Source of the DNA: Sciurus carolinensis
Taxonomy: Eukaryota; Chordata; Mammalia; Rodentia; Sciuridae
NCBI RefSeq assembly: GCF_902686445.1
Contig: NC_062222.1
Location: 38,253,792-38,317,791, forward strand
Direction: 5' to 3'
DNA: 64,000 nt
Below are positions 1-63,154 of this stretch, piece after piece. The stretch's first letter is position 1; every line of letters starts with the position of its first letter. The notes beneath the pieces were generated by a model. The model had not been told where the DNA came from, ran no database searches, and saw only the letters and a program-made list of their open reading frames with translations. Both the position numbers and the translations under genes were made by a program.

Positions 1-564
1 TTAACAGACTCACCATGCATGGTGGAACCACCACATTTGTGGGAATGAGGATGGAAGATGATAGGAAACGTTTCATTGAAATCCATTCGTGAAACTTTCT
101 CAGAAAAGCAACTTCAATTTCAGCCCTATCCAACCTGCAGGTTACAGTACTGCAACAGCAAATCATAAGGGGCTTCTCTAGAAAAACTGGAGGTAGAGTG
201 CTCAGATGTTGGGGGCAGAGTGGTAATGAGGGAAAGAGAAAATACCCAGAGTTTCATGGAAATCCAAAAGTTCAATTGCTCAGAAAACGCAATTTAGTTG
301 CTGCCTAAAGCTGCGTGCATAGGGAAAGCTCAATTCATGGAAATCGAAAGACTTTGTTATAACCGAATCACCTAGCATGGTGGAATCACCACATCTGTGG
401 AGCAAAGTGGGAATGAGAAGGGGACATGAAAGGCCAAATTTCATTGAAATCCATTCGTGAAACTTTCTCAGAAAAGCAACTTAAATTTCAGCCATATTCA
501 ACCTGCACGTTAGAGCACTGAAAGAGCAATACATAAGGGGCTTGTCTAGAAAACGTGGAGGTAG
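1..564. repeat. Satellite array A (366-bp dimer), left block
   Basis: This is tandem satellite built from two related half-units of about 183 bp. Half 1 carries the core gtttcattgaaatccattcg followed by ctttctcagaaaagcaac. Half 2 carries gggaatgag, agagaaaatacccagag, tttcatggaaatcca and catgcatggtggaaccacca. The block runs up to the LINE-1 insertion, and its last 15 bases are the left copy of that element's target duplication. No gene is present; short reading frames here recur with the satellite period. Confidence 0.9.
550..564. repeat. Left target-site duplication of L1 copy 1
   Basis: The 15-mer aaaacgtggaggtag matches 7547-7561 exactly. It comes from the satellite segment normally read as gaaaacctggaggtagag. 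This fixes the L1 start at about 565. Confidence 0.9.
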
Positions 565-570
565 GGGTGG

Positions 571-583
571 GCCAAGATGGCGG
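571..583 (+). promoter_or_regulatory. YY1-type site at the L1 5' end
   Basis: The sequence gccaagatggcgg lies within the first 20 bases of the element. Its reverse complement contains CCGCCATCTTGG, the classical YY1 motif. YY1 sites at this position set the start of transcription in primate L1s. Function here is inferred from sequence and position only. Confidence 0.7.
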
Positions 584-873
584 ACTAGAGGGCGGCTGCA
601 TTTCACGTTGCTCCAGGATGCAAGATTCAAAAGAGGAGATAGTGAGAGACTTGGGACCAACTCAAAGCTGCTGGTGAGTCTCTCCTGTTGGGGAGGCGTC
701 CCGGATGGGGTGGTAGCCCCAGAACGCAGGGAATTTGTGAAGTGGAGTTGCTTGGCGAGACGCCCCTCCCCCCACTGGAGCGGTAAACACAGACAACTGG
801 GATCATCATAGAAGAGGCGGCTCAGCACAGCGCTTGGATTCGAGCAACCACTGGGGCTCTGGGCGTCTGCCTG

Positions 874-1640
874 AGGAGGAGCTGTGTGGCGAGCTGTTTA
901 GACCCAAAACGACCGCTTCTAAACACTGGGGGGTTGCCCGGAGGAAGAGGAGAAGCACGGCGGGTCGCTTGGTCTAGGAGTGACTGCATCAGAGCCACAG
1001 GCGATTACCAGAGGAGGAGCTGCGTGGCCAGGTGTTTGAACTCAGAGCAAGTGCTCCTGAACACCGGGGTACTGCCCAGAGGAAGAGGAGGAGCGCCGCG
1101 GGATGCTTGGTCTAGGAGTGACTGCATCAGAGCCACAGGCAGTTGCCAGAGGAGGAGCTGCGTGGTGAACTGTTTGAACTCAGAGCGAGCGCTCCTGAAC
1201 ACAGGGAGGTTGCCTGGAGGAAGAGGAGGAGCGTGGCGGTTGCTTGACCTAGGAGTGACTGCATCAGAGCCACAGGCAGTTGCCAGAGGAGGAGCTGCGT
1301 GGCGAGCTGTTTGAACTCTGAACAACTGCTCCAGAACACTGGTGGCCTGCCTGGAGGAGGAGAGTGGTGGGACACTTGGTCTAGGAGTGACTGCATCAGA
1401 GCCACAGGTGGTTGCCAGAGGAGGAGGTGAGTGGTGAGTTGATTGGAATAAAAGTGACCGCTCCTGAACACCGGTGGCCTGCCTGGAGGAGGAGCGTGGT
1501 GGGTCACTTGGTCTTGGAGCCACCAAACCTGAACACCCGGGGGGCTACCCCAAGGAGGAGGAGGAGGAACAGGACGGGTCACTTGGACTTGGAGTGACTG
1601 CCTAGGGCTATGGGTGGTTGGCGGGAGGAGGAGACCAGAA
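874..1640 (+). repeat. Tandem 132-138-bp monomers in the 5'UTR of L1 copy 1
   Basis: GC-rich units begin with aggaggagctg at 874, 1012, 1150 and 1287, with a variant at 1419 and further decayed units to about 1640. Each contains gtttgaactcagagc, gctcctgaacac, tggtctaggagtgactgcat and cagagccacaggc. The spacing is 138, 138, 137 and 132 bp. Repeated 5'UTR units of this kind act as promoter monomers in mouse L1s; the same role here is inference. Reading frames on both strands across this stretch follow the repeat and are not called as genes. Confidence 0.85.
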
Positions 1641-2398
1641 GTAAGTTGTTTGGACTCCTAGTGCCTGTGTCAGAAACCGGGTGGCTGTCTGGAGGAGGAG
1701 GTGTGTGGCAGGTCTCTGGGTCTCGGAGCTATTGTATGGGGCTCCAGGTGGTGCCTCAGAGGAGGGGCTGCATAGCCAGGCAATTGGTGCAGAGCAGGGT
1801 CCCAGGAGCTAGGTGGCTTCTTGCTGGAAGAGCCGCACAGAGACACGCCTAGGGGCGGAGCGAAGTTTCCAGGGCGGCGGGCAGATTCTCTGGGAGAGGC
1901 AACCTAAGGAAACTTGCCTGCGAAGGGTGAGGCTCCCAGGCCCAGGACGTAGGTCCGGGCCCCTGGGATCGTTGCAGAGGAAGACAGACCAGCCCAGGTG
2001 GTAGGTGTAGATTGAGGGGAACCTCTAGGAGGGCAACTGACCAGTGAGACGTACCCACCGAGTGAGTCTTCCCGGCGGGGGGAGGTTTTCCCACAGGGAC
2101 GGTAAAACCAGAGACAGAGGCACAAACAGGCCTTGCCTCAGCCCACAGTCTAGTTCCCCATTGGATGACCATTGGTCAACAAGTGGAGGCACCTCTGCCC
2201 ACTAGCAGGGAATATACACCACCTGAGGGTCACCACCCCTAGAGAGGCAGCTTCTTCGTGGAGCTCTGCATTATCAACCTCCTCCAAGACTTCAGGCTAC
2301 TGAAGGATAAGAGGGGATATACTAGCAATCTTCAGGGACATTATAAGTCGATAGAGGAAATCTGCAATATCTTAATGACCCACTGATTCCTGAACAAT

Positions 2399-3412
2399 AT
2401 GAGAAAACAAGGGAAGAAAATGCCCCAAACACATCTAGATGTTACATCAATAAAATCCAACGACAGCATGGCAGAAGAAATGACAGAAAGGGAGTTCAGA
2501 ATGTACATAATTAAAATGATTAGGGAAGCAAACGATGAGATGAAAGAGCAAATGCAGGCATTGAACGATCGCACCAATCGACAGTTAACAGAGCAAATTC
2601 AGGAAGCAAAAGATCATTTCAATAAAGAGTTAGAGATATTGAAAAAAAACCAAACAGAAATCCTTGAAATGAAGGAAACAATAAACCAAATTAAGAACTC
2701 CATAGAAAGCATAACCAATAGGATAGAACAGCTGGAAGACAGAACTTCAGATATTGAAGACAAAATATTTAACCTCGAAAACAAAGTTGAACAAACAGAG
2801 AAGATGGTGAGAAATCATGAACAGAATCTCCAAGAACTATGGGATATCATGAAAAGGCCAAATTTGAGAATTATTGGGATTGAGGAAGGCTTAGAGAAAC
2901 AAACCAAAGGAATGAACAATCTATTTGAAGAAATAATATCAGAAAATTTCCCAAATCTGAAGAATGAAATGGAAAATCAAGTCCAAGAGGCTTACAGGAC
3001 TCCAAATACACAAAATTACAACAGACCCACACCAAGGCACATTACAATGAAAATACCTAACATACAAAATAAAGACAGAATTTTAAAGGCTGTGAGAGAA
3101 AAGAACCAAATCACATTCAGGGGGAAGCCAATACGGATATCAGCAGATTTTTCAATCCAGACCCTAAAAGTTAGAAGGACCTGGAACAACATTTTTCAAG
3201 CTCTGAAAGAAAATGGATGCCAACCAAGAATCTTATACCCAGTAAAACTTACCTTCAAATTTGACGAGGAAATAAAATCATTCCATGATAAACAAAAGCT
3301 AAAAGAATTTACAAAAAGAAAGCCAGCATTACAGAACATTCTCAGCAAAATATTTCATGAGGAAGAGATAAAAAACAAAGAAGAAAATCAGCAAAGGGAG
3401 GAATTATCCTAA
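2399..3412 (+). CDS. LINE-1 ORF1 protein, intact (337 aa)
   Basis: ORF1p is the RNA-binding, trimeric nucleic-acid chaperone that coats L1 RNA in the retrotransposition particle. The frame is open for 337 codons, near the usual length of mammalian ORF1p. Residues about 30-150 form a long coiled coil rich in E, K, I and L. The RRM starts at about 153 with the motif NLRIIGIEEG, and the basic C-terminal domain covers about 250-320, including the segment FHDKQKLKEFTKRKP. The start ATG at 2399 follows the 5'UTR and matches the decayed ATG at 17977 in L1 copy 2. ORF2 begins 58 bases downstream. No damage is visible. Confidence 0.93.
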   Translation: MRKQGKKMPQTHLDVTSIKSNDSMAEEMTEREFRMYIIKMIREANDEMKEQMQALNDRTNRQLTEQIQEAKDHFNKELEILKKNQTEILEMKETINQIKNSIESITNRIEQLEDRTSDIEDKIFNLENKVEQTEKMVRNHEQNLQELWDIMKRPNLRIIGIEEGLEKQTKGMNNLFEEIISENFPNLKNEMENQVQEAYRTPNTQNYNRPTPRHITMKIPNIQNKDRILKAVREKNQITFRGKPIRISADFSIQTLKVRRTWNNIFQALKENGCQPRILYPVKLTFKFDEEIKSFHDKQKLKEFTKRKPALQNILSKIFHEEEIKNKEENQQREELS

Positions 3413-3470
3413 AGGAACTGTCAAATAAAGGAGGAACCAAGATGTGTCAAAAATTTTAAGTATGAACCAA

Positions 3471-4226
3471 ATGACTGGGAATACAAATCATATCTCAATA
3501 ATAACCCTGAATGTTAATGGCCTGAATTTATCAATCAAAAGACATAGACTGGCAGATTGGATTAAAAAGAAAGATCCAACAATATGTTGCCTGCAAGAGA
3601 CTCACCTCATAGAAAGAGATACCCATAGACTAAAGGTGAAAGGATGGGGAAAAACATACCATGTACACGGACTCAGCAAAAAAGCTGGAGTATCCATCCT
3701 CATTTCAGATAATGTGGACTTCAAGCCAATGTTAGTCAGAATGGATAAAAAAGGACATTACATACTGCTTAAGGGAAGCATAAATCAGCAAGATATAACA
3801 ATCATAAACATCTATGCCCCAAACAGTGGCTCATCCATGTATGTTAAACAAATCCTTCTCAATTTTAGAAACCAAATAGACCATAACACAATAATACTAG
3901 GTGATTTTAACATGCCTCTTTCACCACTGGACAGATCTTCCAAACAAAAATTGAACAAAGAAACCATAGATCTCAATAACACAATCAATAATTTAGACTT
4001 AACAGACATTTATAGAATATACCATCCAACCAAGAGCGAATACACTTTCTTCTCAGCAGCACATGGATCCTTCTCTAAAATAGACCATATATTATGCCAC
4101 AAAGCTAATGTCAGCAAATACAAGAAGATAGAGACACTAACTTGTATTCTATCAGATCATAATGGATTGAAGTTACAAATTAATGAAAGAGTAAAAAACA
4201 GAAACTCTCCAACACCTGGAGATTAA
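3471..4226 (+). pseudogene. LINE-1 ORF2, endonuclease segment (frame 1 of 3)
   Basis: The N-terminal APE-type endonuclease of ORF2p nicks target DNA to start reverse transcription. The likely start is the ATG at 3471 (MTGNTNHISI), matching the usual ORF2 N-terminus, although the frame is open from 3444. Catalytic motifs are present: LNVNGL, QETH, GDFN and SDHN. The frame ends at 4224-4226 in a stop caused by a one-base loss near 4204. L1 copy 2 has an extra t at the corresponding place (aacttctcc against aactctcc here), and the same protein continues in the next frame at 4232. Confidence 0.92.
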
Positions 4227-4231
4227 ACAAT

Positions 4232-6115
4232 ATGCTACTATATGATGAATGGATAACAGAAGATATTAGGAAGGAAATTAAAAAATTCTTAGAGGTAAAC
4301 GAAAACAAAGAAACATCATATCAAAATCTCTGGGACACTATGAAAGCAGTACTTAGAGGAAGATTTATTTCATGGAGCGCATTTAATAAAAGAAGTAAAA
4401 CTCAAAAAATAAATGACCTAACACTACAGCTCAAAGCCCTAGAAAAAGAAGAACAGACCAACACCAAAAGTAGTAGAAGACAGGAAATAGTTAAACTGAG
4501 AGCTGAAATCAACGAAATTGAAACGAAAGAAACAATACAAAAAATTGACAAAATAAATAGTTGGTTCTTCGAAAAAATAAACAAAATTGATAAACCTTTA
4601 GCCACAGTAACAAAGAGAAGACGAGAGAAAACCCAAATCACTAAAATTCGGAATGAACAAGGAAATATAACAACAGACACGACTGAAATACAAAACATAA
4701 TTAGAAGCTATTTTGAAAATCTATACTCCAACAAAATAGAAAATTTCGAAGACATCAACAGGTTTCTAGAGACATATGAATTGCCTAAACTGAACAAGGA
4801 GGACATACACAATTTAAATAGACCAATTTCAAGTAATGAAATAAAAGAAGTCATCAAAAGCCTTCCAACAAAGAAAAGTCCAGGACCAGATGGGTTCTCA
4901 GCCGAGTTCTACAAAACTTTTAAAGAAGAACTCATTCCAATACTTCTCAAAGTATTCCAGAAAATAGAAGAGGAGGGAACTCTCCCAAACTCATTCTATG
5001 AAGCCAATATTACCCTGATTCGTAAACCAGACAGAGACACATCGAGGAAAGAAAATTTCAGATCAATATCCTTAATGAACATCGACGCAAAAATTCTCAA
5101 CAAAATTTTAGCAAATCGCATACAAAAACATATTAAAAAGATAGTGCACCATGATCAAGTGGGTTTCATCCCAGGGATGCAAGGTTGGTTCAACATCAGG
5201 AAATCAATAAATGTCATTCACCATATCAATAGACTTAAAGTCAAGAATCACATGATTATTTCGATAGATGCAGAAAAAGCATTTGATAAAATACAGCACC
5301 CCTTCATGCTCAAAACACTAGAAAAAATAGGGATAGTGGGAACATTCCTTAACATTGTAAAGGCCATCTACGCTAAACCCATGGCTAATATCATTCTAAA
5401 TGGTGAAAAACTGAAAGCATTCCCTCTCAAAACTGGAACAAGGCACGGATGCCCTCTTTCACCACTTCTATTCAGTATCGTCCTTGAAACTCTAGCCAGC
5501 GCAATTAGACAGACCAAAGAAATTAAAGGGATACGAATAGGAAAAGAAGAACTCAAACTATCCCTATTTGCTGATGATATGATGGTATACTTAGAGGAAC
5601 CAGGAAATTCCACCAGAAAACTTTTAGATCTCATAAGTGAATTCAGTAAAGTAGCGGGATATAAGATCAATGCACATAAATCTAAGGCATTTTTATATAT
5701 AAGCGATGAATCTTCAGAAAGAGAAATTAGGAAAACTACCCCATTCACAATAGCATCAAAAAAAATAAAATACTTGGGAATCAATCTCACAAAAGAGGTG
5801 AAAGACCTCTACAATGAGAACTACAGAACACTAAAGAAAGAAATTCAAGAAAACCTTAGAAGATGGAAAGATCTCCCATGTTCTTGGATAGGAAGAATTA
5901 ATTTTGTCAAAATGGCCATACTACCAAAAGTGCTATACAGATTCAATGCAATTCCAATTAAAATCCCAATGATGTACCTTACAGAAATAGAGCAAGCAAT
6001 TATGAAATTCATCTGGAAGAATAAAAAACCCAGAACAGCTAAAGCATCCTTGGCAGAAAGAGTGAAGCAGGGGGTATCGCAATACCAGATCTTCAACTCT
6101 ACTACAAAGCAATAG
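4232..6115 (+). pseudogene. LINE-1 ORF2, reverse transcriptase segment (frame 2 of 3)
   Basis: This continues ORF2 after the frameshift near 4204. It holds the linker and the reverse transcriptase, which copies L1 RNA at the nicked target. Visible motifs include [46 protein letters not shown] and the active site FADDMMVYL. Changes from the usual family sequence include RKPD for PKPD, FRSIS for FRPIS, and TRHGCPLSP for [10 protein letters not shown] second frameshift near 6065 sends the frame to a stop at 6113-6115, and the homology carries on in another frame. Confidence 0.92.
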
Positions 6116-7293
6116 TAACAAAAACGGCATGGTATTGGTACCAAAATAGAAAGGTGGATCAATGGTACAGAATAGAGGACATGGACACAAACCCAAATAA
6201 ATACAATTTTCTCATACTAGACAAAGGGGCCAAAAATATGCAATGGAGAAAAGATAGCCTCTTCAACAAATGGTGCTGGGAGAATTGGAAATCCATAAGC
6301 AACAGAATGAAACTAAACCCATATCTCTTACCATGCACGAAACTAAACTCAAAATGGATTAAGGATCTCGGAATCTGACCAGAGACCTTGCATCTTATAG
6401 AAGAAAAAGTAGGTCCAGAGCTTCAACATGTCGGCTTAGGACCAGACTTCCTCAACAGGACTCCCATAGCACAAGAAATAAAAGCAAGAATTAATAACTG
6501 GGATAGATTCAAACTAAAAAGCTTTCTCTCAGCAAAGGAAACTATCAGCAATGCGAAGAAAGAGCCTACAGAGTGGGAGAAAATCTTTGCCAATCATACT
6601 TCAGATAGAGTGCTAATCTCCAGAATCTATAAAGAACTCAAAAAACTCTACACCAAGAATGTAAATATTCCAATTGACAAATGGGCTAAAGAAATGAATA
6701 GACACTTCACAGAAGAAGATATACAAGCAATCCACAAACATATGGAAAAATGTTCAACATCTCTAGTAATAAGAGAAATGCAAATCAAAACCACCCTAAG
6801 ATTCCATCTCACCCCAATTAGAATGGCGATTATCAAGAATACAATCAACAACAGGTGTTGGCGGGATTGTGGGGAGAAAGGTACACTCTTACATTGCTGG
6901 TGGTGCTGCAAATTAGTGCAGCCACTCTGGAAAGCAGTGTGGAGATTCCTTAGAAAACTTGGAATGGAACCACCATTTGACCCAGCTATCCCACTCCTTG
7001 GCCTATACCCAAAGGACTTAAAATCAGCATATTACAGAGATACAGTCACATCAATGTTCATAGCTGCTCAGTTCACAATAGCCAGATTGTGGAACCAACC
7101 TAGATGTCCTTCAATTGATGAATGGATAAAGAAAATGTGGTATATATATACAATGGAATATTATTCAGCCATGAAGAATGATAAAATTATGGCATTTGCA
7201 GGCAAATGGATGAAACTGGAGAATATCATGCTAAGTGAGATAAGCCAATCTCAAAAAACCAAAGGAAGAATGATATCGCTAATAAGTGGATGA
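6116..7293 (+). pseudogene. LINE-1 ORF2, C-terminal segment (frame 3 of 3, one internal stop)
   Basis: This is the C-terminal part of ORF2p. It includes [19 protein letters not shown], the region around [12 protein letters not shown], and the cysteine-rich segment [16 protein letters not shown] near 6858-6905. The tail WYIYTMEYYSAMKNDKIM is followed by the end at 7293. A TGA at 6376-6378 breaks the frame after KWIKDLGI, and homology continues from 6388 in the same frame. With the two upstream frameshifts this makes ORF2 non-functional. Confidence 0.9.
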
Positions 7294-7546
7294 TGACACA
7301 TAATGGGGTGTGGGAAGTGTTAGTGTTGGGGTTGGAGTTGGGTTTAGGAAGGAGGGCAGGAATGGAGGAAGGAAGGACTGTATAGATGGAGGGGAAGGGT
7401 GGGAGGGGTGGGGGGGAAGGGAAAAAATGGCAGAATGAATCAAACAACATTACCCTATGTAAATTTATGATTACACAAATGGTATGCCTTTACACCATGT
7501 ACAGACAGAGAAACAACATGTATCCCATTTGTTTACAATTAAAAAA
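7294..7546 (+). other. LINE-1 3'UTR with G-rich tract and A-tail
   Basis: The short 3'UTR carries a G-rich run at 7388-7421 (ggggaagggtgggaggggtg and neighbours) with at least four G-tracts of three or more, enough to form a G-quadruplex. It ends with atgtatcccatttgtttacaatt and an A-tail that merges with the right target duplication at 7547-7561. G-rich 3'UTR tracts are common in mammalian L1s. Confidence 0.85.
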
Positions 7547-9340
7547 AAAACGTGGAGGTAGAGTAGTCAGATGTTGGGGGAAGAGTGGAAATGAGGAAAA
7601 CAGAAAATTGTCAGAGTTTCATGGAAATCTGGTCGTTCATTTGCTTAGAAAATGCTCTTCAGTATCAGCGTAAGTCTGCGTGCATAGGGAAAGTTCAATT
7701 CATGGAAATCAAAACAGTTTGTTATAACAGAAACTGCATGTATGGTGGATCTACCACATTTGGGGTTAAAGTGGGTATGAGGCTGGGAGATGATAGGCAA
7801 AGTTTCATTGAAATCCATTCATTAAACTTTCTCCGAAAACCAACTTCAATTTGTGCCCTATTCAACCTGCATGTTAGAGTACTTCAACAGCAATATATAA
7901 GGGGCTTGCATGGAAATCCTGCAAAAAGAGTGCTTACATGTTGATTTTAGAGTGGGAATTAGGAAAAGAAAAAATACCCAGTTTCATGGAAATCCAGTCG
8001 TGCATTTGCTCAAAAAATCTTTTGTGTTGCATCCTAACTCTGCATACATATTTTAAGTTCAATTCATAATAATCAAAACAGTTGCTTATAACAGAAGCAC
8101 CATGCATATTGGAACCATCACATGTACCAAGCAAAGTGGGTATGATCAGGGGAGATTATAGGCAAAGTTTCATTGAAATCCATTTCTGAAACATTCTCTG
8201 AAAAGCTACTTCAATTTCATCCCTATTCAATTTGTATGTTAGTGTATTGCAACAGCAGTACATACGGGGCTTGCCTAGATACCTGGAGGTAGAGTGTGCA
8301 GATGTTGGGGGAAGGGTGGGAATGAGCAAAAGAGAAAATACCCAGAGTTTCATGGAAATCCTGTAGTGCATTTGCTCAGAAAATGCTCTTCAGTTGCAGC
8401 CTATCTCTGCTTGCATAGGGAAAGCTCAATCATAGAACTTGAGACAGATTGTTATAACAGAATCACTGTGCATGGTGTAACCACCACATCTTCGGAGCAA
8501 TGTGTGTATAAACACAAGACATGATAGGCGAATTTTCATTGAAATCCCTCTGTGAAACTTTATCAGAAAAGCAACTTCAATTTCAGCCCTATTCAATCTG
8601 CATGTTAGAATAGTGCAACAGCAATACATAAGGATCTTGACAAAAAAAACCTGCAGGTATTCTGCTCAGAAATTGGCCACAGAGTGCTTATGAGGAATAG
8701 AGAAAACACAAAGAGTTTCATGGAAATTCAGTCGTGCATTTGCTGAGAAAATGCTCTTCAGTTGCAGACTAACTCTGCGTGTATAGGGCAAACTGAATTC
8801 ATGGAAATCTAAACAGATTCTTATAATGGAAGCACCTTGCATGGTGGAAGCACAATATGCTCAGATCACACTGGATATGAAGAGGAGAGATTATAGGCAA
8901 AGTTTCATTAAAATCCATTCTTAAACTTTCTCAGAAAAGCAACTTCAATTTCAGCCCTAATCAATATGCATGTTAGAGTATTTCAACAAATATACATAAG
9001 GGGCTTGCCTAGAAAACATGGAGGTAGAGTACTCAGATGTTGGGGGTAGAGTGGTATGAGGAGAAGATCGAATACCCAGAGTTTCATGGAAATCCAATCG
9101 TGCATTTGCTCAGAAAACGCTCTTCATTTGCAGCCTAATTCTCTCTTCATAGGGAAATCTCAATATATGGAAATCGAAACAGATTTTTATAACAATAACA
9201 CTGTGCATGGTGGAACCACCACATCTTTGCAACAAAGTATGTAATTGTAGTAGAGACGATAGGCAAAATTTCATTGAAATCCATCTGTGAAACTTTATCA
9301 GAAAAGCAACTTCTTTTTCAGCCCTATTCAATCTGTACTT
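7547..9340. repeat. Satellite array A, second block
   Basis: The dimeric satellite resumes in register after the L1. The half-1 core agtttcattg falls at 7801, 8166, 8532, 8901 and 9267, giving spacings of 365, 366, 369 and 366 bp. The matching half-2 core is at 7980, 179 bp after the first. No gene is present. Confidence 0.92.
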
Positions 9341-9750
9341 TGATGCTGTCCAACAGAGTCAATTTCACACTCAAAACAAACGGACAACAAGACTCTTGAA
9401 TTTGATGCAGTTTATTGATGATTCAGGAACCCAGAACCCGGAACACCAGCATTTAAGGAGAGCCGACTTATATTCCCTCCAAGAGTGGAAGGGTAGAGCA
9501 AATGCTAGTTAAGCAAAGATCAGGCCAGTTGCTAGCTGTCCAGTCATGGTAAACATCAAACAGGCAGGAGCTGGAGCACTTGGGAATACCTGTGCACACA
9601 TTGTGTGCATTGACTTATTTGAATTCAGCCAATGATAAAGCACTTGGGTATGACTATGTTAACTGACTTCCTCATCACTGATGTGATCAAAACTACTTCT
9701 AGCTTGTTGCTAGGCGCCATCTTGGCGTAGTCTGCATGGCACAGCCCCCA
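9341..9750 (-). repeat. ERV-A 3'LTR
   Basis: About 410 bp alignable to 12473-12875. Shared blocks include gactcttgaat, cttatattccctccagaag and ccaatgataaagcactt. It starts with TG at 9341 and ends at ccccca (9750). Many scattered differences from the other LTR point to an old insertion. Confidence 0.85.
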
Positions 9751-9842
9751 TCATCTCCCACTTCCTTATATGAAATGAAAATGAGCCTGTCAGGAATTGT
9801 GTCTGTCTTAGGTCCTGGGAATCAACATCCTGTCCTTACCCA

Positions 9843-11030: not shown

Positions 11031-11059
11031 ATTATCATCATCAATAGTGGCAGGATCTT

Positions 11060-11260: not shown

Positions 11261-11363
11261 GCATGTCAATCCACTGCTGATTTTCCTTATTTATCCAAAT
11301 TTTAAAAAATTAAGGTAAAAAGGACTATGGGTCCAGCCAATTCTAATTTTGGAATCACCTAAG

Positions 11364-12470: not shown

Positions 12471-12472
12471 CT

Positions 12473-52525: not shown

Positions 52526-52939
52526 TAAGTCTGTCAGTAGGAACCTAGAAGCATTTTAACATTGAGAGCACAAATCTGAAGTACAATTGAAAGAAGCAGT
52601 TGTTTTGTTACATAGTTGAACTGTTCCTCCTAAGAGACTAAAAAGAGGTTGTAAGTTAGTTTATTCCGTGGAAACACACAAACTGAGCCGTAGCTCCAGT
52701 AAAGCACCGGGTTACCCTTATTTCCCAGAGTTAAAAAACCCCAAACAAAGAGACAAAGAGAAAGTTTATCTTTAGGGGACCTGAAGGTCTCCTCTATTCC
52801 CCCTTTTTGTTTATAAAGAGTATTTTTGAGGGTGAGATGTGTATGTTCGACAATACTTTGTTTTTGTGGGTTATAAGGTACATCTGTGGTTAGAGTTATT
52901 TTAATTTTAGTGAGGAATTGGTTTTTACCAATTTTAGTT

Positions 52940-53323
52940 TTTAGAGAAAAATTTAGACTTTATAACGTAGTACAATTTTTAACAGTTGCTTAACCATAAT
53001 TGTATAAACCCCTATTTTTAAGACAAATTGTTCTAAAGGATAAAACTTAATAGACACAAAGTTAAGAGTAAATTAGTGTTTCTAAGAAATCCTTGTCATT
53101 TTATCATGTCCTTTTACCATGTAGATTAAACTTTGGTTTATATCAACACATTAGTATTTTACCTTAGGAAAAATCTTAAATAGCTTTAGCTGTTTTACAT
53201 ACATACAACCAACTTAGTTACACACAGACTTGTTGAAACTTATCTTTTGTTATACACAGACTTTTTTATCCAGAAACATTTCCTTTTACCTTTTACTAAA
53301 TATATTTCTATACCCAGAACCTT

Positions 53324-53362
<39 letters not shown>

Positions 53363-54410
53363 TTTTTTATCTGTTGACACCTTTTTGTTCACATTTTGAA
53401 ACAACTCTTATGAAATTTCTGAATTTAGATAAATCACCCTATTTTAATAAGATTAAATATTTTGTTGTTTATAGTACCCTTAATTGAAACACAGTTGAAA
53501 CTTTTGGGACCCTTTATATATAGAATTCCACTTGTTAGGACATAACTTTTAGTAACCTTGTTTTTGGTTTAGTGATGACACAAAGCAAGTTTAAACCCTT
53601 TTTATTTACCAACCTATGAAAACACCAATAATGTTTAAGTATGTTACCCCATGTAATTTAAGGAGTTAAAAGTACTTGATGTTATTTAACAATTAGCATT
53701 TTAACCTTGTAAATTAACCAGACGTCTCTACAAACACATTTGAGTAATCCCATACATGTCAACTCCAATTTATTTATTTTATAAAAACCAAGATATCAGA
53801 CAAGTGTCCTGAACAGGATCCGTTGCCTCTTTCCTGCTGAAGAAAAGTCCTAGAAGCAATTGATATTAGACATTGTTTAACATTAACATTTCATTAGTTT
53901 GACCACCTGGAGACTTGTAAGTTATTTTTAAAGATATTTTACTTTCATTAGTTTGCCCAATTTAAATTGAACCTTTTTTAAATCACGTGAATAAAAGTAT
54001 TTGGATCCATTTTTAAATTTTAATTTAAAGAGCGCTCAGTTTTGACAAAACATGACATTAGACAGTACAACATAACACATAACACAAAATCAAAGGCCTT
54101 GTAACTTTATAGGTAAATGTTCATTGCAATGAAACAGCTGTTCAAAAACTCTAGTTGAATAAAAAATAGAACTGATCAAAAAAAAATCATTAACCTAGGT
54201 ATGCAAGATCAAAATTATGAGCTCAAAAATACAGCATTAAAGAAAAAACAAAACAAGAATCCTGAAGAATAAGTTAGTTTTTTGTAGCGGCCCAGGAGTT
54301 TAAAACGGACACTTCTCTTTTTTTTTTTTTTTTTTCTTTTTTTTCTTATCTTCAGGCTACCCCCCTTTTCTCCTTGAGACGCTGTAGTTACATTCCAATG
54401 GCTTCAGCAA
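52940..54410 (-). repeat. Non-coding block shared with ERV-B (copy in ERV-C)
   Basis: AT-rich sequence without long frames, occupying the place of pro-pol between gag and env. It aligns with 41805-43310 of ERV-B in the same orientation relative to the provirus. It contains an expanded TTTA microsatellite that ERV-B lacks. Confidence 0.8.
53323..53368. repeat. TTTA microsatellite
   Basis: About eleven copies of the tetranucleotide ttta inside the non-coding block of ERV-C. It produces an artificial plus-strand frame rich in YLFI repeats. Confidence 0.95.
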
Positions 54411-54660
54411 GGCCAGGCAGGGGGAGGAAGGATTACCCAGGACTTTTTAACCCTTTTTCTTCCTGGTTGAGAAATCAGGTTAGGTTTGAATGCAGAAAAT
54501 CATGAAACAATTATCTCTTACAATATTAAGAATTGATCCAAGACACAAACAAGCCACACAACAAACACAAAAATAACACACCACACACACAATTTGGTAC
54601 CCCTTTACAAATTGAAACTAACTAATTTTATCGGGCAACGAATCTGCCTTTTGTGAACTT

Positions 54661-54760
54661 TTACCGGGCTTTCAGTCTATTAACCTCTCTCTGTTACCGG
54701 GCTTAAAGCCTATTAATCTTTCTCTGTTACCGGGCTTCCTAGCCTTACTTATTTTATTAC
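54661..54760. repeat. 33-bp tandem repeat in ERV-C leader-distal region
   Basis: Units starting ttaccgggctt lie at 54661, 54694 and 54727, with a decayed copy upstream (tcgggcaacg at about 54631). The period is 33 bp. No coding role is visible. Confidence 0.8.
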
Positions 54761-54929
54761 TTTATTGTTTTATTATTTTATTACTTTATTACTTACCACT
54801 TATTTTACCCTTGTCTGTGAAAAATTATTGTTCTTATGAAATTTTTGAATTTAGCCTAGTTTTAGACAGTTCTATTCCTATGATTAAATCTTACAGCACT
54901 AAGAGGTAGTTTACTAGTTTAAACACACA

Positions 54930-54982
54930 AACAAAAGACAGGCGCGCACACGCACACACGCTCACTCACACACGCACACAGT
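54930..54982. repeat. CA-rich simple repeat
   Basis: A run of cacaca, cgcgcacacgc and cactcacacac at the junction between the gag-like region and the non-coding block. Confidence 0.85.
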
Positions 54983-54997
54983 TTGGTACCACTTGAC

Positions 54998-55130
54998 TCG
55001 TCCCTCCTATGGGGAACCTTTTGTGATGAATCGTCCCTCCTCTGGGGAACCTCTTGTGATGAATCGTCCCTCCTCTGGGGAACCTCTTTTTATGACTCGT
55101 CCCTCTTACGGGGATCCTTTTGTGACTCTT
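54998..55130 (-). repeat. 11-codon tandem repeat in ERV-C gag region
   Basis: Units beginning tcgtccctc on the plus strand occur at 54998, 55031, 55064 and 55097, exactly 33 bp apart. In the gag frame on the minus strand each unit encodes 11 residues of the type VPQRRDDSSQ plus one acidic residue. A TAA in the gag-proximal unit ends the matrix frame before the others. Confidence 0.85.
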
Positions 55131-55410
55131 CTTTTACCTTTTTCAATACTTCCTCTCCCTGTGTAACTGCCTTTTGTAAAGCCTCCCGAGGGGAATGCAA
55201 ACAAGTTCTGACTAATGACCAAACTGCTAACGTCCCTGGGAGCGTTACCGGACAGCGCTTTAAATCTTCCCCCGGGTGTTCCCACTGTGGGATAGTTAGC
55301 AATCCTTCCTCCAGAAACCAAGGTGAAATCTCCTCTACCTGCTTTAAAAATGCTTTAAGAATTTCTTTCAAGGGACCTTCCATTCTACATCTAGCAACCT
55401 CGTTCCCCAT
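55090..55410 (-). pseudogene. ERV-C gag, matrix region (106 codons)
   Basis: The minus-strand frame starts at MGNE, where Gly2 fits N-myristoylation of Gag. It contains a matrix-like region (VEEISPWFLEEGLLTIPQW). ERV-A gag carries a similar PWFLEE motif near 12100. It stops at 55090-55092 within the 33-bp repeats. Capsid and nucleocapsid are absent, so this is a truncated Gag. The ATG lies about 150 bases after the primer-binding site, a normal leader length. Confidence 0.8.
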
Positions 55411-55563
55411 TTTTTGAGGAAACTTTAACCTCTCGTTCCTAGGAACTTTATCGCAATCACAATATTCTCGTCTCTAGGAAACCTCCCTGTCCACTGACAG
55501 ATCTGGGTGCACACTTTCACGGATCGTTGCTCACCTCACTCACCTCTCCGCGGCACGTAAGAT

Positions 55564-55581
55564 TCCCGGGTTTCGGCACCA
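55564..55581 (-). promoter_or_regulatory. ERV-C primer-binding site for tRNA-Phe
   Basis: The minus strand reads TGGTGCCGAAACCCGGGA two bases after the 5'LTR. This is the complement of the 3' end of tRNA-Phe, the primer also used by rodent IAP elements. Confidence 0.9.
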
Positions 55582-55583
55582 CT

Positions 55584-55937
55584 TGTTGCTCTCGCCAGCA
55601 AGAACGACCCGGGGACGTGATGGGTGGCAAACTTCTTTATTAACAGCAGCTTCTTCTTCCTCCTTTAGGGAAGTTATTGTCACTTATATAGGTTATATCA
55701 ACTAATTAGAATATTCATGATATGTGGGGAGAAGATAGACGTATATGGGTATAACTTGAAGCACCTAAGAATCACGCAAGAATCATGCAGAGGCCCTGAC
55801 CAATTACTGAGACTTCCTCAAGGTGAAGTTAGTTGTATACGTGCAGAATAGCAGTTTTTCAACCGCACTGGCAGCTTGCCAGGCGCCATCTTGGCCAGGC
55901 TCCACCTAGGGCCAGGGGTCCGGCCGAAACCCCGACA
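55584..55937 (-). repeat. ERV-C 5'LTR
   Basis: 354 bp, matching the other LTR except at three sites (including tgttgc against tgtcgc at the edge). It is followed by the second copy of the ttctgg target duplication. Its transcription would run leftward, antisense to CASD1. Confidence 0.95.
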
Positions 55938-56947
55938 TTCTGGTTGCTGCATATCTGTTTCAGACAGGGTATGGGCATTTCTCATACTTCTGGATCAAAG
56001 GAGACTTTGGAATCCATAGAGTATGTCAGGTCTTATTTCGTCTCAATTTCCTAGTAGTGGTGTTATGTATAGTAATGGATCGACCTTATCAATTCTATTA
56101 CTTTGTTCCCTTGGTCACTGTATGGTTCATGGTCATATATGTTACTTTAGCACTGTGGCCACAAATAATCCAAAAGAGAGCAAACGGAAATTGTTTCTGG
56201 CATTTTGGCTTGCTGTTGAAACTAGCCTTTTTACTGTTATGCATATGTTTTTTGGCATATTCTCAGGGTGCATTTGAGAAGATCTTTTCTCTTTGGCCAT
56301 TGTCCAAGTGTTTTGAACTGAAAGGGAATGTATATGAATGGTGGTTCAGATGGCAGTTAGACCGTTATGTAGTCTTCCATGGAATGCTATTTGCTTTCAT
56401 TTATTTGGCTTTACAGAAGCGTCAAGTACTTTCTGAAGGAAAGGGTGAACCTCTTTTTTCAAACAAAATTTCAAACATTCTATTGTTTATTTCAGTAGTT
56501 TCTTTCTTGACCTATTCCATCTGGGCTAGCAGTTGTAAAAATAAAGCAGAGTGCAATGAGCTCCACCCATCTGTTTCTGTGGTACAGATTTTAGCCTTCA
56601 TCTTAATAAGGAATATCCCTGGATATGCCCGTTCAGTTTACAGTTCATTTTTTGCTTGGTTTGGAAAAATTTCATTAGAGCTGTTTATTTGTCAGTATCA
56701 CATATGGCTGGCAGCTGACACAAGGGGTATTTTGGTACTCATACCCGGAAACCCTATGCTCAACATCATTGTCAGCACTTTCATCTTCGTTTGTGTGGCA
56801 CATGAAATTTCTCAGATCACTAACGATCTTGCACATATTATTATTCCTAAAGATAACTCATCTCTCTTGAAAAGGTTGGCATGTATAGCTGCATTTTTTT
56901 GTGGACTACTCATCTTATCGTCCATTCAAGATAAATCAAGACATTAG
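55938..56947 (+). pseudogene. CASD1: CASD1 processed retrocopy, 3' part of coding region
   Basis: This continues the CASD1 reading frame from the ERV-C insertion point to the normal stop after SSIQDKSRH (56945-56947). About 335 codons are open with no stop or frameshift. They carry the multi-pass C-terminal domain, with spans such as FVPLVTVWFMVIYVTLALW and YVVFHGMLFAFIYLAL. The target duplication lets the frame be followed across the insertion. An ATG at 56057 could start a 296-residue fragment, but there is no promoter evidence and the catalytic domain is absent. Confidence 0.93.
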
Positions 56948-58142
56948 GTTCCTAAAATCCCAAAAAACTTAAACTCTTCAGGCTTACTTTGTGTCTGCCT
57001 GGAGGAGAAAAGGATCTATCTGGAAATATAATTGTCTCTGTAAATATAAACGTGGCAAAAGGACAGTGTAGTGATGTCTGTTGAACAGTGTGGTTGTATA
57101 TATTGGCAATGTACATATCTGATGTGAAATACTAAGAAAAAATTGATGAACCAGAATGCGACATAGGATTGCATGTGAAAAGTCTTTTCTACTGGATCTA
57201 TATTTCCATTTATAAATGATTTTAAGTTAACATATGAAGTCAGGGAAATGATTAGCTTTCCAGTACAAAGTATAGATAATTTAATTAGCCTAGTGACACC
57301 ACTGTTTTGATATTTACTAAATTTGTGGTAATAAGATTGTCTGTGCCTGTCTTCAGTGTGGAACTTCCTACTTCATTGAAAACTTTTTTACTCCAGAATG
57401 ACTTGCAGTGTTGTGTTCTTATGTGCAATGACATGGAATGATGAACAGTATGCCTTTAATTTATATGTATTCATGTTCTGGTTGTTCATGTTTGCTGACA
57501 TGATTTTTGTCCTGACTGTGGTTTTCAGGTATACAAGTCTAAATCTTTGTAGTCTTCGTCTCTCAAAGTTGTTCTAAGGCTCCATGACAGGGTTCTACAT
57601 TGTTGATGTTGTCATTGCTTCTTTTTATAAAAAGGCCAAATTTTCCTTTCAGTGCAAACATTCACCCATTTTTTTTTCCTTGTTACCCTGTGGATCCATT
57701 TAATGTTTTCCCTTCCCTAATTAATTTTTGTATATTATTTCCAATGTTTGGAAAGTTCTTTATAACCATTTTGGTATTTCCTATTATCCCCTCCCATTTA
57801 AAAAAATATTTATCAATCTAAACATGTGCAGTGTAGTAAAGATTCAAGTTGTTATGATTGAGATGTATGACCATAGTAGAATTTTAAGTAAACTGGTGAC
57901 TTGGGCAATAAATGTTTCTGTTTGTTTGTTTTTTTTTTTTACAAGCTAACTGTTAGAGGTATATGTTTATTTATCTGTTGTACAGATTTGATTATGATTT
58001 TTAATGTTTGAAAGATTGCACTTATTTGCTTTTACTATGTGTGAGGTAAAATATATATTTTCTGTTCACGGTATGTAAAAATATGGAGTAATTTAAACAG
58101 TAAATAAACATTCTGTGGATGCTTAAAAAAAAAAAAAAAAAA
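56948..58142 (+). pseudogene. CASD1: CASD1 retrocopy 3'UTR and poly(A) tail
   Basis: About 1.2 kb of 3'UTR follows the stop. It includes two AATAAA signals (near 57908 and 58102), and an A-tail from 58125 comes about 20 bases after the second. The tail and the lack of introns identify LINE-1-mediated retrocopying. The satellite resumes at aaagtatagttgagg. No clear target duplication is visible, and about eight satellite bases seem to be lost at the insertion site. Confidence 0.88.
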
Positions 58143-61100
58143 GAAAGTATAGTTGAGGAATTTGTTAATATACTATGCTACTTAGTGAACCCTGCAAGAC
58201 AGGAACACCAAACTTTGGGAGAAAGGTGGGAATGATGGATAGCGAAAACCCACAATTTTCATTGAAATCCATACTGAAACTTTTTATAAATGTTAAGTTT
58301 GAATGTAGGATTCTCAGCCTGCATATAGATAAAACAGTTGAGGTATTTGATTATTTACTGTACTATTGGTGAACCATGCAAGATAGGAGTACCAAAGTTT
58401 GGGAGAAAATTGGAACTGATAGGTAAAGAATATACTCATGGTTTCATTGAAATCCACTAAAGAATCTGTTTAAAAATGTTCACATTGAGTGCAGTTATTC
58501 TTGACCAATATATAGAAAGAACAATTGAGGAATTTGTTAACTTACAGTCCTCGGTGGTGAACCCTGGAAAACAGGAATACTAAACTTTGGGAGAAAAGTG
58601 AGAATGACGAGTACAAGAAATACACAACCTTTCCTTAAATTCCATAGTGAAACTGTTTAAAAACATTCACACTGAGTGCAGCTATTTCTTGGTCTGCATA
58701 CAGAAAGCATATTTAAGGAATATGTTAACTTACTGTGATACAGTGAACACTGAAAGATTGAAACACCAAACTTTGGTAGAAAATTGGGACTGATAGGAAG
58801 AGAAAATACAAAAGGTTTCATTGAAATTCATCATTGAAACTGTTTAAAAACGTGCAGTTACTTCAGCTATTCTCTGCCTGCATATAGATAGCACAGTTGA
58901 GAAATTTGTTAATTTACTCTGCTACCAGTGAACCCAGAAAGATAGAAAAAACAAGCTTTAGGAAAAGTGGGAATGGTGTGAAGAGAAAATACACAACTTT
59001 TCATTGAAATCCACTAGTGAAACTGTTTTAAAATGTTCACTTTAAGTGCAGGTATTCTCGGCCTGCACATAGAAAGCATATTTAAGAAATATGTTTACTT
59101 ACTGTGCTACCATTGAACCTTGTAGACAGAAACACCATAAATTGGGAGAAAGGTAAGAATGATGGGTAGAGGAAATACTCAAGGTATCATTGAAATCCAT
59201 CAGTGAAAGTTTTTAAAAGTGTTCACTTTAACTTCAGCTATTCTCTGCCTGCGTATAGACAGCACAGTTGAGGAATTTGATAATTTACTGTGCTGCTGGT
59301 AAACCCTGCAAGATAGAAATACCAAATTTTGGGAGAAAAGTGGGAATGATGGGTTGAGAAAATACCCTGGTTTCATTGAAATCCACTAGTGAAACTGTTT
59401 AAAAAAGGTTCACTTTGAGTGCAGCTACTCTCTTGGCCTACGTAATAGAAAGCACACTTGAGGAATTTGTTAATTTACTGTTCAAGCCAGTTAATCCTAC
59501 ATACAGTAACCCCAAACATTGGTAGAAAAGTGGGAATGATGGGTTGAGATAATACCCAAAATTTCTCTGAAATCCATTAGTGAAACTGTTCAAAAAGGTT
59601 CACTTTGAGTTCAGCTATTCTTGGCTTATGTATAGAAAGAACAGTTCAGGAATTTGGTAATTTACTGTGCTCCTGGTGAACCTGCAAGACAGAAACACCA
59701 AAATTGGGAGAAAAGTGGGAGTGATGGGTAGAGAAAATACCCAAGGTTTCATTGTAATCCATTAGTAAAACTGTTTAAAAATGTTCAATTTGAGTGCAGT
59801 TATTCTCGGCCTGCATATAGATAGCAGAGTAGAGGAATGTGATAATTTACTGTGCTCCTGATGAACCCTGCAAGATCTTAACACCACAGTTTGGGAGAAA
59901 ATTGGAACTTATTGGTAGAGAAAATACCTAAGATTTCATTGAAATCCATCAGTGAAACTGTTTAAAAATGTTAAGTTTGACTACAGCTATTAGTCTATGT
60001 AAAAGAAGCATAGTTGAGGAATTTGTTAATTTACTATGCTAGCCAGTGAACCCTGCAAAATAGGAACACCAAACATTGGGAGAAAAGTGAGAATGATGGG
60101 TATAGTAAATCTACAACTTTTCGTTGACATCCATAGGGAAACTTTAAAAATGTTCACTTTGAGTGCAGCTATTCTCGGCCTACATATACAAAGCACATTT
60201 TCAGAATATGTTAATTGACGGTGCTGCCACTGAACCCTGCAAGATAGAAACAACAAACTTTGGGAGAAAAGTGGGAATGATGGGAAGAGAAAATACCCAA
60301 GGTTTCATTGAAATCCACTAGCAAAGCTGTTAAAAACATTCACTTTGAGTGCAACTATTCTCGGTCTATGTATAGAAAACACTGTTGAGGAACTTGTTAA
60401 TTTACTGTGCTAGCTGGTGAACCCTGCAAGATAGGAACATGAAACTTTGGGAGAAAAGTGGGAATGACTAATAGAAGCAATACCCAACTTTTCATTGAAT
60501 TCCATTAGTGAAACTGTTTAAAAGCATTCACTTTGAGTGCAGCTACTCTTGGCCCTCATATAGAAAGCACATTTAAGGAATATGTTAATTTACTCTGCTA
60601 TTGATTAAACCTGAAAGATAGAAACACCAAACTTTGGGAGAAAAGTGGGAATGATGGGAAGAGAAAACACCCAAGGTGTCATTGAAATTCACTAGTGAAA
60701 AGTGTTTGAAAACGTTCACTTTGAGTGCAGCTATTCTCGGTCTATGTATAGAAAGCACAGTTGAGGAATTTGTTAATTTACTGTGCTAGTTGGTGAACAC
60801 TGTCAGATAGGTACCCCAAAGTTTTGGAAAATATTAGAAATGATGTGTATATAAAATAATTAGTGTTTCATTGAAATCATTTAGTGAAACTGTTTCAAAA
60901 TGTTCAACTTGAGTGCAGCTATTCTCTAACTATATATATAAAGCACTACTGAGGATAGTGTTAATTTACTGCGCTAGGTGGTGAAGTATGCAAATAAGAA
61001 CACCAAACATTGGGAGAAATTTGGGAATGCTGTTTAGAGAAAATGAACAACTTTTCATTGAAATCCATAGTGAACTTTTTAAAAACTTTCACTTTGCATG

Positions 61101-63154
61101 CATTTATTCTGTGCCTCCTTATAGAAAGAACAGTTGGAGATTTTATTTATATATTGTGCTAGCTGGTGAACAATGCAAGATAGGAACACCAAACTTTTGG
61201 AGAAATGTGGGAATGACAGGTAGAGAAAACACCCAAAATTTTATTGAAATCCATAGTGAAACTGTTTGACAATGTTCTTCGAGTGCAGCTATTCTCCATC
61301 TCCATATAGAAAGCACAGTAGAGGATTTTGTTAATTTACTGTGCTAGTCAGTGAACCTTGCCAGGTAAAAAACAAAAATGAAACTGAGAGAAAATTGGAA
61401 ATGATGGGTAGAGAAAATATCAAGGGTTTCATTGACATCCATTCGTGAAACTGTTTAAAAACATTCACTTTAAGTGCATCTATTTTCCTCCTGTATATAG
61501 AAAGCAAAGTTGAGGATTTTGTTAATTGACTGTGGTAGCTGCTGAACCCTGCAAGATAGGATCACCAAAGATTGGGAGAAAATTGACAATGAAGGGCAGA
61601 GAAAATACCCTGGGTTTCATTGGAATCCATTCGTGAAACTGTTTGAAAATTTTCACATTGAGTATAGCTATTCTCCACCTATAAATACAAAGCACAGTTG
61701 AAGAATTTGTTAATTTATTGTGCTAATCAGTGCACCCTTCAAGGCAGGAAAATGAAACTTTGGGAGAAAATTCAGAATGATGGTTAGAGAGAATACCCAG
61801 GGTTTCATTGAAATCAATTAGTGAAACTGTTTAAAAATGTTCACCTTGTGTGCAGCTATTCTCTACCTATATAGAGAAAGCACAGATGGGATATTTTTAA
61901 TTAACTGTGCTAGCTGGTAAACCCTACAAGATAGGAACACCAAAGTTTGGGAGAAAATTGGGAATGATGGGTAGAGTAAGTACCCATTATTTCATTGAAA
62001 TCCATTTGTGAAATTGTTTGAAAACGTTCACTTTGAGTGCAGCTATTCTCCACCTCCATAAAAAAAGGACAGTTGAGGTGTTTTTTAATTTACCGTGCTA
62101 GCCACTGAACCTTGCAAGATAGGAACACCATACTTCGGGAGAAAAGTGGGAATGATGGGTAGAGAAAAATCCCAAAATTTCATTGAATTCCATTCCTGAA
62201 ACTGTTTAAAAATGTTCACTTTGAGTGCAGCTATCCTCTGCCTTCATATAGAAAGTACAGTTGAGGATTATGTTAATTTTCTGTTCTACCTACTGAACAC
62301 TTCAAGATAGGAACACCAAACTTTGGGAGAAAAATGCGAATGATGGGTGGAGAAAATACCCAATGTTTCAATGAATTCCATTCGTGAAACGTTTTAAAAA
62401 TGTTCACTTTGAGTGCAGCTATTCTCCACCTCCTTATAGAAATCACAGTTGAAGAATTTGTTAATTTACTGTGCTAGCCACTGAACACTGCAAGATAGCA
62501 ACACCAAATTTTGGAAGAAAATTTGGAATGCTATCTGGAGGTAATATCCAGGGTTTCATCTAAATCCATTGATGAAACTGTTTAAAAGCATTCACTTTGA
62601 GTGGAGCTAGTCTCACCTCCATATAGAAAGTGCAGTTGAGGAATTTGTTATTTTACTGTGCTAGCCAATGAACCGTGCAAGACAGGAACACCAAACTTTG
62701 GGAGAAATTTGGGAATGATGGATAGAGTAAACACCCAATATTTCATTGAAGTTCATTAGTGAAACAGTTTAAAATGATTCTCATTGTGTGCCACTATTCT
62801 CCATCTCCATATAGAAAGCACAATTGAGTATTTTGTTAATTTACTGTGCTACCTGCTCAACCCTGCAAGATAGTATTACCAAACTTTGGGAGAAAAGTGG
62901 GAATAATGAGTGGAGAAAATACCCAATGTTTCAATGAATTCCATTTGTGAAACTGTTAAAAAGTTCACTTTGATGCAGCTATTCTCTGCCTCCATATAGA
63001 AAGCACAGTTGAAGAATTTGTTAATTTACTGTGCTATCCCATGAACCCTGCAAGATAGGAATACCAAATGTTGGAAGAAAAGTGGGAATGATAGGTGGAG
63101 AAAATACCCAATGTTTTAGTGAAATCCATTAGTGAAATTGTTTAAAAACGTTCA
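58143..63154. repeat. Satellite array B, third block and array end
   Basis: About 27 monomers of near 185 bp. Cores of the tttcattg segment at 59934, 60119, 60303, 60490 and 60677 give spacings of 184-187 bp. The array stops within a monomer at gtttaaaaacgttcaaa, and the sequence then becomes non-satellite. No gene is present. Confidence 0.92.

What the first reader, a model, noticed from the sequence alone, without database searches (positions are those of the whole stretch)
1..63154. One satellite family in two states: 366-bp dimer and 185-bp monomer
Array A alternates two half-units of about 183 bp that are clearly related to each other (both carry a tttcat-gaaatcca core, a gtggga/tatgag segment and a ctcagaaaa segment). 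Array B uses a single 185-bp unit with the same cores. This is the relation seen between higher-order and monomeric alpha satellite in primates, but in a squirrel. Roughly 66 dimers and 47 monomers are present, with nucleosome-sized units. I do not recognise the family.
Basis: partly seen in the sequence, partly recalled or inferred. Interest (0 to 1): 0.85.

Follow-up and report, generated by a model that had tools for sequence, protein, structure and literature searches.

The report
Layered centromere-type satellite, apparently not alpha
The window is the outer edge of a centromere-like repeat block in which one family of DNA repeats lies in layers, the least alike outside and the most alike inside, an arrangement described for primate alpha satellite but built here from what looks like an unrelated repeat.

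Summary
Array A strictly alternates two related half-units (A1 187 bp, A2 181 bp); array B is a 187-bp monomer array of the same family. The window's own genome (unnamed, 2.8 Gb) shows the setting. An exact 26-base A2 word occurs 531 times (reversed control 0), with one main cluster on each of large contigs C1-C7. Matches to related monomers lie within 0.3 Mb of A on eight large contigs, and on both sides on C4 and C9. On the window's contig A runs into an assembly gap. Mean dimer identity is 0.86-0.89 beside the gap and 0.77-0.82 in the window; then comes B, then non-satellite DNA. Flanks elsewhere are irregular mixtures of A1-like, A2-like and B-like monomers that attach to the stems of the core A1 and A2 clades. 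So three arrangements coexist: one-type monomers, irregular two-type mixture, regular dimer, as published for human alpha satellite layers. Homology to alpha is not shown, and no exact CENP-B box occurs in about 346 kb. Dimers are too unlike each other for a fresh higher-order repeat: the window is a decayed flank. Centromere function, species and other genomes were not tested. New member of a known kind.

The parts
2..583 (+). Array A (A1/A2 dimer), domain L
584..7546 (+). L1 (ORF1 and reverse transcriptase domains) inserted in an A2 monomer; a flanking duplication of about 12 bases seen by eye
7547..9357 (+). Array A, domain L
9358..12872 (.). LTR element inserted in A; two LTRs, K2P 0.216; one open fragment searched, no Pfam match, so its strand is not shown
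12873..16940 (+). Array A, domain L; partial A2 duplication near 15.4 kb
16941..21968 (+). L1 inserted in A, 87-90% alike to the first L1 over two stretches
21969..29500 (+). Array A, domain L
29501..39750 (+). Array A, domain R (consensus closer to B and to flank monomers); the switch falls at about 29.0-30.2 kb
39751..46923 (-). LTR element with a Gag_p10 fragment at the A/B junction; no matching flanking duplication seen by eye; LTRs K2P 0.125
46924..49708 (+). Array B, 187-bp type-1 monomers
49709..49915 (+). Insertion with an A-rich end inside B, read by eye as a retroelement tail
49916..50886 (+). Array B
50887..58141 (+). Retrocopy with poly-A end inserted in B (Pfam Cas1_AcylT; the name CASD1 is recalled), interrupted by an LTR element at 51262-55937 (LTRs 99.2% alike)
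58142..63155 (+). Array B, outermost satellite found on this side

Best explanation
The window is the outer right-hand flank of the centromeric satellite block of the 141-Mb contig C10. One family with two old monomer types (type 1: A1 and B; type 2: A2) was arrayed as type-1 monomers and as irregular mixtures. A regular type-1/type-2 dimer (A) arose, spread to many chromosomes and was re-expanded at the block's interior by unequal exchange, so older forms (A domain R, then B) were displaced outward, stopped being homogenised and gathered mutations and transposons. Shown: the order of forms on C10, the tree, the gradient on C10 and the recurrence beside A on other contigs. Inferred: which forms are older (it rests on the flank consensuses, see evidence), that the gap is or was the kinetochore site, and that exchange there drives the expansion.
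For: Place: window = C10:38253792-38317791. A starts at 38,140,374 on the minus strand, runs on that strand into N at 38,191,692 and is on the plus strand from the next piece sampled, 38,193,792. Gradient: mean dimer identity falls with distance from the gap on the right (12 pieces, rho -0.78, p=0.0026) and on the left (8 pieces, rho with coordinate +0.86, p=0.0065). Right-side A1 copies beyond 15 kb, not used for the core consensus, match it at 0.880, 0.863, 0.850, 0.813, 0.788, 0.760 going outward. Tree: core A1 and core A2 are tight clades (each 100/100, stems 0.18 and 0.15); all 13 flank A2-like rows lie in the type-2 clade outside core A2; 12 flank rows join core A1 (100/97), 11 of them as a weakly supported sister group (80/72). 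Flank A1-like and A2-like consensuses are more alike (0.807) than window A1 and A2 (0.723); domain R is nearer the flank consensus than the core is (A1 0.809 vs 0.775, A2 0.835 vs 0.793). Recurrence: C1-C7 have one main A cluster each; nine large contigs have both A and flank-type matches, eight within 0.3 Mb. Neighbour order: 9 same-type and 628 different-type pairs in A loci, 32 and 30 in five flank pieces.
Against: No CENP-A, FISH or Hi-C data. No A array with nearly identical adjacent dimers was found, so the active core is unassembled or another sequence. B is not more diverged than A in the window (0.137 against 0.124-0.154). Single A copies show no significant trend in identity to the flank consensus with distance (A1 rho 0.10, p=0.25; A2 rho 0.17, p=0.07), and the rise in identity to B along the window is significant for A1 (rho 0.45) but not A2 (rho 0.14, p=0.29). 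No B was found left of A on C10, though only 2 kb in each 10 kb was sampled over most of that stretch. An LTR element without a visible flanking duplication fills the A/B junction. On C7 the flank-type matches lie about 2 Mb from the main A cluster. Strays occur at C3:40.39, C4:69.43, C4:124.35, C7:131.07 and C10:20.16 Mb. The tree is unrooted and its bootstrap had not settled.
Confidence: 0.78

Rival explanations
1. A pericentric satellite that never carried the kinetochore; the active centromere uses another, unassembled repeat and A and B are its neighbours.
For: No homogeneous A array was found; no CENP-B box.
Against: A runs into the gap from the left, is present 2 kb to its right and is most homogeneous near it; one main cluster on each of C1-C7.
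Confidence: 0.16
2. B is not a layer on C10: recombination between two copies of the LTR element joined a B array from elsewhere to the end of A.
For: The element sits exactly at the junction, its left end matches the right LTR poorly by eye and no flanking duplication is visible; no B was found left of A on C10.
Against: Flank-type matches lie near A on eight other large contigs, within 0.3 Mb on seven; on C1 three flank-type monomers run into regular A without interruption. The consensuses of domain R, next to B, are shifted towards B and the flank forms.
Confidence: 0.12
3. A deeply diverged relative of primate alpha satellite.
For: Against a recalled alpha consensus, A2 scored above all 300 shuffles, p=0.002-0.008 with loose gaps, and its profile p=0.006-0.010.
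Against: In one search the A1, B and both joint profiles gave no match. With the other two scoring schemes A2 gave p=0.06-0.13. Flank consensuses, which should be nearer a common ancestor, gave p=0.03-0.26 (A2-like), 0.03-0.08 (A1-like), 0.05-0.31 (B) and 0.04-0.46 (all), uncorrected. B against mouse minor satellite also reached 1 of 300, so such scores arise elsewhere. PMC4053949 reports no similar repeat in tarsiers or prosimians (passage).
Confidence: 0.03

Closest known systems
Human alpha satellite layers: SF4 (one M1 class), SF5 (R1/R2 irregular) and higher-order families, as described in PMC2729386
   Same: One-type monomers, irregular two-type mixture and a regular multimer; decayed, transposon-broken arrays outside; forms shared between non-homologous chromosomes. 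Published within-layer monomer identities run 0.71 to 0.84 inward (Table 3); here dimer identity runs 0.77 to 0.89.
   Different: No demonstrated homology, no CENP-B box found, unit 181-187 bp, no nearly identical higher-order array found; both-sided flanks seen only by matches on C4 and C9.
New World monkey 343-bp dimeric repeat (PMC4053949, section 11)
   Same: A dimer with weakly related halves became a dominant unit.
   Different: Another family; here monomeric and mixed arrangements still lie beside the dimer.
Higher-order tandem repeats reported in 76 of 171 species with Sanger data (PMC4053949, section 11)
   Same: A1 and A2 cluster separately; the multimer period is the one TRF reports.
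   Different: Those were called within single Sanger reads, without chromosomal position.

Membership tests
Layered centromeric satellite (kind) | One main place per chromosome | tested here: met
   C1-C7 in the 100 of 531 places listed, with single strays on C3, C4 and C7; C8 had none; places after the start of C9 not listed
Layered centromeric satellite (kind) | Homogeneity rises toward the interior | tested here: met
   C10 only: (both sides)
Layered centromeric satellite (kind) | Order along the chromosome agrees with branching order | tested here: met
   C10 right side, by consensus and tree; single copies show no trend to the flank consensus
Layered centromeric satellite (kind) | Layers on both sides of the core | tested here: inconclusive
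   flank-type matches on both sides of A on C4 and C9; only the right side on C10
Layered centromeric satellite (kind) | CENP-A chromatin at the core | not testable with these tools
   no chromatin data
Higher-order repeat | Multimer period beats the monomer period in TRF (criterion of PMC4053949) | tested here: met
   A: 365-369 bp and no monomer row; B fails it, 188 bp scoring 3074 against 1973 for 374 bp
Higher-order repeat | Nearly identical multimer copies (PMC2729386) | tested here: not met
   adjacent dimers 0.77-0.88 on C10
Alpha satellite | Sequence homology to the 171-bp unit | tested here: not met
   joint profiles no match; weak scores for A2 and for some flank consensuses, not robust to scoring; alpha consensus recalled
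Alpha satellite | CENP-B box in one monomer type | tested here: not met
   window: 48 sites with up to 2 mismatches, 43.4 expected, 28 of 100 shuffles as many; 0 exact in 353 kb of fetched DNA and window, about 346 kb without overlaps, both strands; box recalled

The most novel reading that the evidence does not exclude
The alpha-like succession (one monomer type, irregular mixture of two, strict two-type dimer, in ordered layers) evolved independently in a satellite with no CENP-B box. Two-type alternation at centromeres would then not need CENP-B, and layered satellites could serve as a phylogenetic record beyond primates, which PMC2729386 raised as a possibility.
Probability: 0.5. Interest if true: 0.8.

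Novelty: new member of a known kind. Interest (0 to 1): 0.62.

Why it matters
Alpha satellite layers are a main model of how centromere DNA turns over. A second, apparently unrelated family with the same arrangements in the same spatial order would turn that into a comparison. PMC2729386 describes the class B monomers of alpha as CENP-B binders; here two-type alternation occurs with no CENP-B box found, so the two can be separated. The ordered forms can be compared between related species.

Tried and rejected
B as an A1/A2 recombinant: permutation p=0.10. Present selection on the 60-column block: within-class conservation does not differ inside and outside it (A1, A2, B p=0.64-0.79). Short-range order in B: no lag stands out, largest |z| 1.8. 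A 4-mer in A: only a weak excess at lag 4, z about 2 in several sub-arrays. A divergence trend within each sub-array: none significant. Exact patterns elsewhere: 0 matches for two in viral contigs and one in genome contigs. Rfam at gathering score and tRNA search: none. Rodent check by counting an ID-like SINE word: not completed. Absolute dating was not attempted; PMC2729386 (section 9) argues that abandoned arrays mutate abnormally. Literature: the listings showed no paper whose title or abstract opening describes a sciurid satellite of this kind, and none on layers in a rodent satellite; only listings were seen, in an open-licence library.
Full report
Observation. A is a head-to-tail alternation of A1 (187 bp) and A2 (181 bp) at 2-39750; B is a 187-bp monomer array at 46924-63155. 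TRF reports 365-369 bp over A and 188 bp over B. nhmmer assigns 67 A1, 68 A2 and 49 B hits; 64, 62 and 46 reach 85% of full length and were used, the rest dropped. Neighbours under 40 bases apart: A 1 same-type and 128 different-type pairs, B 46 and 0; two further same-type pairs in A fall just beyond the cut. Satellite makes up 32,351 of 64,000 bases.

One family. Consensuses share 57% (A1-A2), 66% (A1-B) and 61% (A2-B) of aligned columns, score far above shuffles, and each class is one side of a branch among 172 monomers. Identity is concentrated in 60 columns across the monomer join (44 of 60, p=0.002), which are not better kept within classes now.

Two domains in A. A1 switches from form L to R at about 30.2 kb and A2 at about 29 kb, by ten and two diagnostic sites. 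R consensuses are slightly closer to B than L consensuses (A1 0.687 vs 0.667, A2 0.627 vs 0.605, against B1). By single copies the rise in identity to B along the window is significant for A1 (rho 0.45, p=0.0002) but not A2 (rho 0.14, p=0.29).

The genome. The window is C10:38253792-38317791 of a 2.8-Gb genome in 752 contigs. Fetched were eight loci of 3.3 kb, 20 pieces of 10 kb, 17 of 2-3 kb, one of 8 kb and five flank pieces of 1.5-3 kb. On C10 the satellite begins at 38,140,374 on the minus strand and runs into N at 38,191,692; the last bases before the N read as A2 by eye. It is on the plus strand in the next piece, 38,193,792. The N run reaches the end of its piece, so it is at least 100 long; the next 2 kb was not sampled. 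No satellite was seen in the nine pieces sampled between 38.054 and 38.136 Mb (one of 10 kb, then 2 kb in each 10) or in five 10-kb pieces right of the window. On C1 the A2 word also changes strand, 23 places on plus then two on minus.

Gradient. Using contiguous dimers of 340-395 bp (321 in all loci and the window), mean identity within a piece is 0.868-0.890 in the two pieces right of the gap, 0.825-0.829 at 12-62 kb and 0.774-0.816 in the window. On the left it is 0.841-0.851 at 23-48 kb, 0.852-0.856 at 13-18 kb and 0.862-0.882 next to the gap. Spearman rho with position is -0.78 (12 pieces, p=0.0026) and +0.86 (8 pieces, p=0.0065); pieces hold 4-15 dimers. Against a core consensus from L042-L045, right-side A1 copies beyond 15 kb, not part of it, fall 0.880, 0.863, 0.850, 0.813, 0.788, 0.760 outward; A2 goes 0.853, 0.843, 0.825, 0.812, 0.796, 0.803. 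Identity of single copies to the flank consensus shows no significant trend.

Flank forms. A B query gave 128 matches, on C10 and on C3, C4, C5, C6, C7, C9, C13, C25, C27, C30 and small contigs. A mixed flank query gave 217, of which only the best part was listed. Five flank pieces (C9 twice, C13, C6, C27) hold 68 assigned monomers, 18 of them A2-like, with 32 same-type and 30 different-type neighbours, against 9 and 628 in the A loci (Fisher p=5e-30; neighbours are not independent and some loci are duplicates of each other). Several monomers score about equally with the A1 and B profiles. Flank-type matches on C3, C4, C5, C7, C12, C25 and C30 were not fetched. On C1 (L025) three flank-type monomers run directly into regular A.

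Branching. The tree has 153 monomers: 72 sampled from the window, 24 A monomers sampled from six other loci (one on C10), and 57 flank monomers at least 80% long (of 68). Type 2 holds the 36 core A2 and 13 flank A2-like (100/99); type 1 holds the other 104 (100/99). Core A1 and core A2 are each 100/100. The flank A2-like rows attach outside core A2; 12 flank rows (7 by A1 profile, 5 by B profile) join core A1 at 100/97, 11 of them as a weak sister group (80/72). Of 37 flank rows assigned to B, 27 join the window B (99/95), five are among the 12 just named, and five attach elsewhere in type 1. The tree is rooted at its midpoint only, and the bootstrap had not settled. That flanks keep older forms is inferred from their greater mutual likeness: A1-like to A2-like 0.807, window A1 to A2 0.723.

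Places. The A2 word occurs 531 times (184 forward, 347 reverse; control 0). The 100 places listed cover C1-C7 and the start of C9: one main cluster each on C1-C7, single strays at C3:40.39, C4:69.43 and C7:131.07 Mb, none on C8. Large contigs with both A and flank-type matches: C3, C4, C5, C6, C7, C9, C10, C12, C30. The distance is under 0.3 Mb on all but C7 (about 2 Mb, with one A match near the flank array). C4 and C9 have them on both sides.

A fresh core? A central A dimer from a small contig finds 92-99% matches, one or two dimers per contig, on small contigs; all other listed matches are at 89% or less (352 matches, listed in order of E-value down to a cut). So no homogeneous A array was found. 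It may be missing in gaps, or the centromere may use another sequence.

Comparison. PMC2729386 (abstract, outline, introduction and section 9 read) describes human SF4 as one monomer class, SF5 as two types alternating irregularly and higher-order families at active centromeres with older layers outside, and suggests that such layers could be analysed in non-primate taxa. PMC4053949 (found passages and section 11) reports higher-order repeats in 76 of 171 species and the monkey 343-bp dimer. The arrangements here match in kind. Alpha membership is not supported: joint profiles find nothing, A2 and some flank consensuses give weak scores that depend on the scoring, and no exact CENP-B box occurs nor an excess of near matches in the window.

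Insertions and time. A carries two L1s and an LTR element (K2P 0.216, 379 bases); B carries a Cas1_AcylT retrocopy with a nested LTR element (LTRs 99.2% alike); an LTR element lies at the junction (K2P 0.125). Half of 0.216 is 0.108, against 0.124-0.154 for satellite copies from their sub-group consensus. With CpG-like sites left out it is 0.066 against 0.129-0.165. So the outer arrays had probably stopped homogenising before that insertion. No absolute dates are given.

Shown and inferred. Shown: family unity, the three arrangements, their order on the right side of C10, the gradient on C10, the tree and the recurrence. Inferred: relative ages, that the gap is the centromere, that unequal exchange there makes new layers, and that flank forms were once centromeric. 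Not tested: species, chromatin, other genomes, gradients on other chromosomes. On checking the draft against the calls I lowered the main confidence from 0.80 to 0.78, because single copies show no trend to the flank consensus, and raised two rivals (pericentric only, alpha relative) by 0.01 each.

Noticed in passing
50887-58141: Retrocopy with Pfam Cas1_AcylT (CASD1 by recall) inserted in B, with open stretches of 180 and 345 codons on either side of a nested LTR element whose LTRs are 99.2% alike; it looks recent.
   Followed up: partly
39751-46923: LTR element exactly at the A/B junction without a visible flanking duplication: a possible rearrangement breakpoint.
   Followed up: partly
L043 2901-3000 (C10:38191692-38191791): Satellite orientation changes from minus to plus across an assembly gap of at least 100 N; on C1 the A2 word also changes strand between 87.214 and 87.219 Mb.
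   Followed up: partly
C96, C71, C38, C46, C98, C249, C441, C331, C197: Small contigs share one A dimer at 92-99% identity while other dimers match the same query at 85-89%: recent duplication of a pericentromeric block, or separate haplotypes.
   Followed up: no
L025 4247-5295 (C1): Uninterrupted junction from flank-type monomers to regular A dimers.
   Followed up: partly
C10:20155239-20155604 and C4:124348912-124349213: Stray A (89%) and flank-type (79%) matches far from the main clusters; possible old centromere sites or moved fragments.
   Followed up: no
63267-63500 and 63890-63970: SINE-like sequences read by eye as B1/ID-like (recalled), which would fit a rodent.
   Followed up: partly
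L003 and L008 1315-3125: TRF scores a 732-733-bp period slightly above 366-367 bp: a hint of a four-monomer unit.
   Followed up: no
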